Source: Planctomycetaceae bacterium (GTDB taxonomy: Bacteria > Planctomycetota > Planctomycetia > Pirellulales > UBA1268). From it: a stretch of DNA of 43,238 nt. The stretch covers positions 1 through 43,238 of the forward strand of contig SXWA01000009.1 in NCBI GenBank assembly GCA_005791575.1. Direction: 5' to 3'. Made by a program: the position numbers and the translations under genes. The notes under the pieces were generated by a model, which saw only the letters and a list, made by a program, of their open reading frames with translations, did no database searches and was not told the DNA's origin. Numbering within the stretch: position 1 is the first letter of the stretch; every line of letters begins with the position of its first letter. This document shows, piece after piece, positions 5,774 through 7,285 of this stretch.

Positions 5774-7285
5774 ATGCAGCGACTCCGGGCGATTTCACGC
5801 AGTGCCCTTGCGGCCTGTGGCCAAAGTCCACACCTGGCCTTTGGCCACTCGAAAACCGACGGTTTTCACGGGAGCTTTGCTCCCGGCACCGGATCCCTCC
5901 GGTGCGGCAGGCTGTTTGTCCACAGCCTGCTGGCGGCCTTCGCCATCGTTGGCAGCGCCGGAGGCGACGAATTCGCACCGGCGTTTCCGCAGGATCCGGT
6001 GGGCGCCATCGACGGCGAGATCGCCGGGGCGACTCCTGCACCCCAGATGCAACTGGGCGAGATCGCCGAACCGGGTGGGCTGGTCGCGGTGGAACCGATC
6101 CGCGAGGGCCTCCCCAGCCTACCGGACCGGCTGGCCGACGACATGCGGCTCGACGAGCCGATGCTGGAGCAGATGCCTGACGAGCTCAGTTCGGGCAACT
6201 GGTTCTCGCTCGGCCAGTATTACGGCTCGGTCGAGAACGTCTGGATGGGACGCAACCGCGAGTACCGCCGCGTGGTCGGCCGCGACGTGCTCATTCCCGT
6301 GCCCTTGGGCCGCAACAAGCAGGGGGTGTTTTCCACCGACTCGATTCCCTACGACCTCGCGCCGGGGGCGCGGGTGACGCTCGGGACGTTCCTCGGCCGT
6401 GACTATCTCAACCGCGACCAGTCGCTCGAACTCACCTATTACGGCGGGTTTTCCTTCGCGATCAACGACACCTGGAACGCGATCATCCTCAACAGCGGCA
6501 CGGCGTCGTCGTTCCTCGTGCCGACGATTGCCGCCGCCTCACCGGGCTTCACCGGTGCGCAGGAATACGACCTCAAGACCACCTCCAACTTCAACAGCCT
6601 GGAACTCAACTGGAAGCTCCATCGCCGCCTCGGGCGCGACAAGGTGACGATGTCGCCCAATGGCGACTGGACCAAGCATGCCGAACGCGGCTGGCTCCCC
6701 AGCCTGATCGTCGGCCCGCGGATCGCCAACGTGAACGAGACGTGCACCTTCAGCGGCCGCATGCCCGGTCAGCCGGTGTCGACGTTCGGCGGTGACTATG
6801 CGATCGAAACGCAGAACTGGCTCCTCGGCCTCAACCTCGGCGGCGAGCTCATCAGCCAGAACGAGTTCTTCTACTGGGGGCTCCGCGGCCGGGTCGCACC
6901 GGCGATCTCGTTCACCGCCAACCAGCAGTCGTTCTACGGGGTCAACAATTACCTCCCCTCGTCGATCCCGATCCGCGGTCTCGACGGCAATCAGATCGTG
7001 ATCGACGGCGTGCCGCAGACGGTCACCGTGCCCCAGGGCACGGAGAGTTGGCAGATGGCGGCCACCCAGACGGCCCCCGGCTTCCTCGGCGACCTCTCGA
7101 TCCTGGCGGGCTGGAACGTGACTCCCAACTTCGCGGTCCAGTGCAGCTACGACTTCCTCTGGATCGGTGGACTGGCGACCGCCACGCGGCAGTTCAACAT
7201 GAACAAGATCCGCCAGAACCCGATCGACGGCGGCGGGCAGATGTTCCTCAACGGCTTCGCCTTCGGCATCAACGGTACCTGGTGA
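5774..7285 (+). CDS. BBP7-family-like outer-membrane beta-barrel protein
   Basis: GNWFSLGQYYGSVENVWMGRNREYRRVVGRDVLIPVPLGRNKQGVF..., beta-rich, ends ...FGINGTW (C-terminal aromatic residue typical of outer-membrane proteins). ATG 5774 or in-frame GTG 5762. Confidence 0.75.
   Translation: MQRLRAISRSALAACGQSPHLAFGHSKTDGFHGSFAPGTGSLRCGRLFVHSLLAAFAIVGSAGGDEFAPAFPQDPVGAIDGEIAGATPAPQMQLGEIAEPGGLVAVEPIREGLPSLPDRLADDMRLDEPMLEQMPDELSSGNWFSLGQYYGSVENVWMGRNREYRRVVGRDVLIPVPLGRNKQGVFSTDSIPYDLAPGARVTLGTFLGRDYLNRDQSLELTYYGGFSFAINDTWNAIILNSGTASSFLVPTIAAASPGFTGAQEYDLKTTSNFNSLELNWKLHRRLGRDKVTMSPNGDWTKHAERGWLPSLIVGPRIANVNETCTFSGRMPGQPVSTFGGDYAIETQNWLLGLNLGGELISQNEFFYWGLRGRVAPAISFTANQQSFYGVNNYLPSSIPIRGLDGNQIVIDGVPQTVTVPQGTESWQMAATQTAPGFLGDLSILAGWNVTPNFAVQCSYDFLWIGGLATATRQFNMNKIRQNPIDGGGQMFLNGFAFGINGTW
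5814..5934 (+). repeat. 121-bp multi-hairpin element, copy A, inside the N-terminal coding region of the BBP7-like gene
   Basis: About 88% identical and equal in length to 29409-29529 by manual alignment (15 differences); five consecutive inverted repeats. Confidence 0.93.

What the first reader, a model, noticed from the sequence alone, without database searches (positions are those of the whole stretch)
5814..5934. 121-bp five-hairpin element embedded in frame in a signal-peptide region (copy A), with a second copy 23.6 kb away
Seen directly: the region is five consecutive inverted repeats. H1 gtggccaaag/ctttggccac (5817-5826, 5839-5848). H2 gaaaacc-gac-ggttttc (5851-5867). H3 gggagc-ttt-gctccc. 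H4 gcaccgga-tccc-tccggtgc. H5 gcaggctgt-ttgtcc-acagcctgc. A gap-free copy lies at 29409-29529 in an unrelated secreted-protein gene. Both copies are read in the same frame (GQSPxxAFGHxKxxxFxGSxAPGTGSLRCxRLxxHSLLA). Both sit between the N-terminal start and the hydrophobic core of the signal peptide, so the element itself supplies the beginning of that core (RLxxHSLLA). Inference: this is a mobile or selfish palindromic element that tolerates translation, conceptually like the in-ORF Rickettsia palindromic elements, or a structured RNA regulating translation or export that has been recruited to secreted-protein genes.
Basis: partly seen in the sequence, partly recalled or inferred. Interest (0 to 1): 0.92.

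Follow-up and report, generated by a model that had tools for sequence, protein, structure and literature searches.

The report
Mobile hairpin repeat hiding in signal peptides
The repeat is a 119-base non-autonomous transposon (a MITE) present in roughly 170 copies in this freshwater planctomycete, mostly between genes, and when it does land inside a gene it tends to sit in frame in the disposable signal peptide of a secreted protein, so the mature protein is probably unchanged.

Summary
The 121-bp region is a 119-bp element (window 5811-5929; second copy 29406-29524) made of five consecutive hairpins. It is not limited to two copies: about 170 occur in the 3.84-Mb incomplete genome. Copies are flanked by a 4-bp target duplication of YTAR/YYRR type (45 of 103 perfect, 6.8 expected). 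The two unequal ends match the two unequal ends of a 1.4-1.5 kb IS1182-like insertion sequence that uses the same target. It is therefore a MITE. It occurs only in this family: 39 of 250 genomes of the order, all in family f1. The hairpins are kept by compensatory changes (137 cells against 33 expected). Most copies are intergenic (129 of 157 classified), 21 lie inside genes, and 13 of those are N-terminal. Ten of the 13 lie in clear signal peptides. Four orthologous empty sites confirm in-frame insertion. Element plus duplication is 123 bp (41 codons). In genera where the sum is 122 bp, none of 58 copies lies inside a gene. In-frame MITEs, and one case within a signal peptide (Yersinia YPO1552), are known. 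The systematic signal-peptide niche appears new.

The parts
5811..5929 (+). MITE copy A, 119 bp
   Evidence: nhmmer/HMM limits from 103 copies; fold
5807..5810 (.). 5' target duplication of copy A, CTTG (one mismatch to CTGG)
   Evidence: single CCTGG at the orthologous empty site of G003
5930..5933 (.). 3' target duplication of copy A, CTGG
5811..5826 (+). 5' terminal inverted repeat, CGGCCTGTGGCCAAAG (family consensus CAGCCCGTGGCCAAAG); matches the transposase-downstream end of the IS
5914..5929 (-). 3' terminal inverted repeat, reverse complement CAGGCTGTGGACAAAC; matches the transposase-upstream end of the IS; holds the DnaA-box-like TTGTCCACA
5817..5848 (+). hairpin 1 (arms 5817-5826 / 5839-5848)
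   Evidence: covariation at the 11-34 pair
5851..5867 (+). hairpin 2 (arms 5851-5857 / 5861-5867)
   Evidence: GC/CG switch in 48 of 138 copies
5869..5885 (+). hairpin 3 (arms 5869-5875 / 5879-5885)
5886..5905 (+). hairpin 4 (arms 5886-5893 / 5898-5905)
   Evidence: GGA/TCC versus TCA/TGA subfamilies
5908..5929 (+). hairpin 5 (arms 5908-5915 / 5922-5929)
5762..7285 (+). secreted protein gene A, GTG start 5762 conserved in G001-G003; the element is in frame between the n-region and the hydrophobic core
29406..29524 (+). MITE copy B, 119 bp
29402..29405 (.). 5' target duplication of copy B, CTCA (two mismatches to CTGG)
29525..29528 (.). 3' target duplication of copy B, CTGG
29330..31654 (+). 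secreted protein gene B (Reg_prop motif), element in frame inside the hydrophobic core; ATG 29330 or GTG 29354 start

Best explanation
The element is a MITE: a short non-coding derivative of an IS1182-like DDE insertion sequence, moved in trans by that transposase. SHOWN: the transposase family's own ends and 4-bp YTAR target match the MITE's two unequal ends and its target duplications. SHOWN: insertion is strongly depleted inside genes. SHOWN: in this genus element plus duplication adds exactly 123 bp, and two of the three forward frames are stop-free in most copies, so a hit keeps the reading frame. SHOWN for four genes by orthologous empty sites: the element sits in frame in the signal-peptide region. 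INFERRED: signal peptides tolerate it because the 41 inserted residues lie before the cleavage site, the reading frame ends in a leucine-rich HSLLA that rejoins the hydrophobic core, and the extra peptide leaves with the signal peptide, so the mature protein is unchanged. INFERRED: the internal hairpins are kept for transposition or DNA/RNA folding, and not for regulating the host genes.
For: Copies: 168-176 end matches genome-wide, none with the reversed control pattern. TSD: 45 of 103 perfect 4-bp matches, permutation mean 6.8, max 16 of 2000, with no excess match outside the four bases; also seen in other genera (18 of 46 and 8 of 12). IS: 1488-bp element with CTAG on both sides and the end CAGCCCGTGGCCAAAGTCC, identical to the MITE over 19 bp; other IS copies carry CAGGCTGTGGATAAAGT at the transposase-upstream end, matching the MITE 3' end; more distant IS in Botrimarina also show CTAG and CAGCCCGTTGA. 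IS present in same-genus G003. Empty sites: A (G001-G003) and B (G003); C117 lipoprotein (MKWSD.../MIWSD...) and C45. Context: 129 intergenic, 21 genic, 13 of 21 N-terminal against 25% expected (p=0.0004), 19 of 21 sense. Control: 0 of 58 genic where the net length is 122 bp (Fisher p=0.0013). Frames open: 104 and 112 of 118.
Against: The own genome shows no such transposase, though it is only 74.5% complete and repeats drop out of MAGs. The transposase scores below NCBIfam's IS1182 cut-off (191 against 270 bits). Gene calls are from a home-made codon-usage caller. Signal peptides in the 13 N-terminal cases were judged by eye, while the background (98 of 307) used a crude rule. In 2 of the 13 a downstream start is possible. 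The 122-bp control is confounded by stricter YTAR targeting and by sampling the best-scoring copies. No expression or proteomic data.
Confidence: 0.88

Rival explanations
1. A structured RNA element (leader or mRNA-stability hairpin array) that regulates translation or export of secreted-protein genes, spread or kept for that function.
For: Very stable hairpins; compensatory changes in stems (137 cells against 32.6 expected); in the own genus intergenic copies point the same way as both neighbours more often than the opposite way (39 against 13, p=0.0004).
Against: Most copies are intergenic and only about 10 lie in signal peptides; the orientation bias is not significant in other genera (20 against 13); folding is equally strong on both strands; orthologues in G001-G003 do without it; no Rfam match.
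Confidence: 0.08
2. The N-terminal copies are not translated: they lie in 5' leaders and translation starts downstream, so the signal-peptide pattern is an artefact of start calling.
For: Start codons cannot be proven by sequence; in C60:1940 and G003 C247 a separate signal peptide with possible starts lies downstream; copy B has an in-frame TTG just before the hydrophobic core.
Against: Copy A, C78 and C117 have no in-frame ATG/GTG/TTG between the element and the hydrophobic core; the GTG start of A and the MxWSD start of C117 are conserved upstream of the element in relatives without it; inserts keep the frame, and excision restores an equal-length alignment to the orthologue (C45).
Confidence: 0.12
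3. A REP/REPIN-type element mobilised by a RAYT (Y1 HUH) transposase.
For: Small, palindromic, high copy, sometimes in tandem; REPs are reported from Planctomycetes (PMC3733652).
Against: No Y1_Tnp in G000-G003; a 4-bp target duplication is present, which Y1 transposition does not make (general knowledge); ends match a DDE IS.
Confidence: 0.02
4. Simple paralogy of two N-termini.
For: Only two copies in the window, in the same frame.
Against: About 170 copies genome-wide, empty orthologous sites, target duplications.
Confidence: 0.01

Closest known systems
Rickettsia palindromic elements (RPE)
   Same: About 100-150 bp palindromic, dispersed, found between genes and in frame inside protein genes, tolerated (PMC10969869, PMC2229807).
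   Different: Here an autonomous IS with matching ends is found, a 4-bp duplication is clear, and the favoured site inside genes is the signal peptide, not metabolic proteins.
Enterobacterial RU-1/ERIC and RU-2/YAPL MITEs (Delihas 2007, PMC2759123)
   Same: Open-frame MITEs fused in frame; Yersinia YPO1552 has a signal peptide partly formed by RU-2.
   Different: There one predicted case, with target dinucleotide TA; here about ten signal-peptide cases, four genes with empty orthologous sites, unrelated sequence and a different transposase family.
Correia/NEMIS elements of Neisseria (PMC2229807)
   Same: The open-frame 107-bp version enters genes while the stop-containing 155-bp version does not, parallel to 123 bp against 122 bp net length here.
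   Different: Different sequence and TA target; there the difference is stop codons, here chiefly length modulo three.
RUP of Streptococcus pneumoniae (PMC2229807)
   Same: About 107 bp, about 108 copies, proposed to be moved in trans by an IS (IS630-Spn1).
   Different: RUP is intergenic; here the transposase is IS1182-like and the target is YTAR.
IS1182/IS5 superfamily insertion sequences
   Same: Partner transposase belongs here (PF01609; NF033551 191 bits, NF033581 106 bits).
   Different: Below both curated cut-offs, so a divergent subgroup, seen here in planctomycetes.

Membership tests
MITE (non-autonomous IS derivative) | short (<600 bp), no transposase gene, many dispersed copies | tested here: met
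   119 bp in 107 of 118 full copies of G000; 168-176 end matches
MITE (non-autonomous IS derivative) | terminal inverted repeats | tested here: met
   CAGCCCGTGGCCAAAG / CAGGCTGTGGACAAAC, imperfect, about 15 bp
MITE (non-autonomous IS derivative) | target-site duplication | tested here: met
   4 bp, 45 of 103 perfect against 6.8 expected; empty site with one copy
MITE (non-autonomous IS derivative) | ends shared with an autonomous element using the same target | tested here: met
   1488-bp IS with CTAG duplication and identical 19-bp end
MITE (non-autonomous IS derivative) | transposition in trans demonstrated | not testable with these tools
   needs a transposition assay
Rickettsia palindromic element | member of the RPE sequence families | not tested
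   host is a planctomycete; no comparison with RPE sequences was made; only the behaviour is compared
REP/REPIN (RAYT-mobilised) | RAYT/Y1 transposase in the genome | tested here: not met
   no PF01797 in G000-G003
REP/REPIN (RAYT-mobilised) | GTAG/CGTC-tagged hairpin of 20-40 bp | tested here: not met
   119 bp, five hairpins, YTAR duplication on both sides
IS1182 family (partner transposase) | NCBIfam NF033551 score above the curated cut-off | tested here: not met
   191.1 bits against 270; best match among IS families, so called IS1182-like
Rfam RNA family | match at gathering score | tested here: not met
   no match in the window

The most novel reading that the evidence does not exclude
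The g1 lineage of this MITE is adapted to live in coding sequence: length 119 plus 4 gives 41 codons, stop-free forward frames and a leucine-rich 3' end have been kept because they let it use cleavable signal peptides as a safe harbour, where the inserted peptide is discarded after export.
Probability: 0.2. Interest if true: 0.72.

Novelty: new variant of a known kind. Interest (0 to 1): 0.52.

Why it matters
It gives a mechanism by which a transposable element can enter genes at little cost: by landing in a part of the protein that the cell removes. It also provides a natural test: related MITEs whose insertion adds 122 instead of 123 bp are not found in genes. If the peptides are translated and cleaved, these planctomycetes make secreted proteins with 60-70-residue signal peptides partly encoded by selfish DNA, which gene annotation and signal-peptide prediction would miss. 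With about 170 copies it is also a likely reason why such MAGs break at many contig ends.

Tried and rejected
Two-copy paralogy: rejected. RAYT/REP mobilisation: no Y1 transposase and a clear TSD. Known RNA family: no Rfam match. PF01609 in the own genome: none, and a search with the partner transposase itself also gave none in G000. The MAFFT alignment across genera misplaces hairpin 2 by one column, so covariation was counted only on the ungapped 119-bp copies. Integron attC-like or CRISPR-like readings were dropped: tandem arrays are only 2-3 units with a 4-bp TSD between units, and nearly all copies are single.

Full report
WHAT IS THERE. Window 5814-5934 and 29409-29529 are two copies of one repeat, 88% identical and gap-free. 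Each folds as five consecutive hairpins with an energy no dinucleotide shuffle reaches. Comparison of 103 full copies fixes the element at 119 bp: 5811-5929 and 29406-29524.

COPY NUMBER AND RANGE. The window is contig C72 of a 3.84-Mb, 74.5%-complete planctomycete MAG. Exact-or-near matches to the 3' end number 168 and to the 5' end 176, with none for the reversed control pattern. Copies occur in same-genus genomes G001-G003 and, diverged, in other genera of the family. In 250 genomes of the order, 39 carry it and all 39 belong to family f1.

HOW IT MOVES. The four bases on either side match far more often than chance (45 of 103 perfect; permuted mean 6.8, maximum 16 in 2000), and the excess is limited to exactly four positions. 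The favoured targets are CTAG, CTAA and TTAG, then CTGA, CTGG and CCAG. Tandem copies share one 4-bp spacer. The ends are an imperfect inverted repeat, CAGCCCGTGGCCAAAG at one end and CAGGCTGTGGACAAAC at the other. A search for DDE transposases found an IS1182-like gene next to the same end sequence in G003 and G032. A GTDB-wide scan found further copies. One is a complete 1488-bp insertion sequence with CTAG on both sides whose end CAGCCCGTGGCCAAAGTCC is identical to the MITE; others carry CAGGCTGTGGATAAAGT at the transposase-upstream end, matching the MITE 3' end. The more distant Botrimarina IS has the same CTAG target and the end CAGCCCGTTGA. The MITE is thus the two ends of this IS brought together around a hairpin array. 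The transposase scores 191 bits against NCBIfam's IS1182 cut-off of 270, so it is called IS1182-like. The window's own genome shows no copy of the gene. The complete 1488-bp IS lies in a MAG labelled Actinomycetota, probably a misassigned planctomycete contig (inference).

THE HAIRPINS ARE MAINTAINED. In 138 distinct 119-bp copies of the genus 94.6% of pair cells are standard pairs. There are 137 doubly compensated cells against 32.6 expected if the sides varied independently, spread over several stems, for example GC/CG at pair 46-52 and TA/GC, CG/GC at 81-90 and 82-89. Related copies inflate the number. Other genera keep hairpins 1-4 with different letters (for example GTGGACAAAG/CTTTGTCCAC), while hairpin 5 is weak there. 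Both strands fold equally well, so this does not tell an RNA role from a DNA role.

WHERE IT SITS. With a codon-usage gene caller written for this purpose, 157 copies of the two best-covered genomes could be placed: 129 intergenic, 7 overlapping a gene end, 21 inside genes. Random insertion at the same targets would place about 65% inside genes, so genic copies are strongly selected against. Of the 21, 13 are within the first 240 nt against 25% expected (p=0.0004), and 19 are in sense. Ten of the 13 lie in clear signal peptides (by eye: C72 twice, C117 lipoprotein, C124, C184, C45, C47, C60:7516, C78 sulfatase-like, G003 C336). Two more are in secreted-type genes with possible downstream starts, and one (C259) is not. 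A crude rule finds signal peptides in 98 of 307 neighbouring genes.

PROOF OF IN-FRAME INSERTION. Orthologues of A in G001, G002 and G003 lack the element and share the upstream GTG start; G003 has a single CCTGG at the site. Orthologue B in G003 lacks it. The C117 lipoprotein reads MKWSDCWAVL-[element]-LLRTVALVIAVAVALPLASGC against MIWSDGQRALRICMALMVLGGLAAGAIGC in G003. The C45 protein without the element aligns residue for residue in length with G003. In copies A, C78 and C117 no start codon lies between the element and the hydrophobic core.

WHY IT IS TOLERATED. Element plus duplication is 123 bp. The forward strand is open in two frames in 104 and 112 of 118 copies, the reverse in one frame in 99 of 118. 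The main frame ends ...RLFVHSLLA and rejoins the hydrophobic core. All but one or two inserts lie before the predicted cleavage site, so the extra residues should leave with the signal peptide (inference). As a natural control, in genera g5 and g8 the element is mostly 118 bp (net 122 bp), and none of 58 placed copies is inside a gene, against 21 of 157 (Fisher p=0.0013). That control is confounded by stricter YTAR targeting and by sampling of best-scoring copies.

WHAT IS KNOWN. In-frame MITE fusions are established: RPEs in Rickettsia, RU-1/RU-2 in enterobacteria, Correia elements in Neisseria (PMC10969869, PMC2229807). A MITE forming part of a signal peptide has been predicted for Yersinia YPO1552 (PMC2759123). 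No paper found in the held library describes MITEs in Planctomycetes with IS1182-type ends or a recurrent signal-peptide niche, but the library omits most subscription journals.

VERDICT. A new IS1182-like-derived MITE family; membership as a MITE is well supported. The signal-peptide niche is a moderately surprising, testable extension of a known phenomenon.

Noticed in passing
window 5914-5929 (3' end of the element) and all copies: The 3' terminal repeat contains a DnaA-box-like nonamer: TTGTCCACA occurs 54 times inside copies and only twice outside in 393 kb sampled; other genera carry TTATCCACA, the E. coli consensus box. About 170 such sites could bind DnaA.
   Followed up: partly
G000/G003 copies listed: Twelve copies have 5' flank CGAG that is mostly not matched at the 3' side; unexplained second flank class.
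   Followed up: partly
window 7259-7342: A 27-bp unit GCCTTCGGCATCAACGGTACCTGGTGA, the C-terminal codons plus stop of protein A, is repeated three times in tandem beyond the stop.
   Followed up: no
window 34992-35830: Three 263-bp repeats at 288-bp spacing inside the large reverse-strand gene 34967-38197.
   Followed up: no
window 163-354: Three copies of a 60-bp tandem repeat near the contig start.
   Followed up: no
intergenic copies in G000/G003: Intergenic copies point the same way as two co-directional neighbours 39 times and the opposite way 13 times (p=0.0004); not significant in other genera (20 against 13).
   Followed up: partly
G000 contigs C18, C42, C43, C57, C90, C129, C212, C273 and others: Many contigs end within tandem copies of the element, so it likely breaks the assembly.
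   Followed up: no
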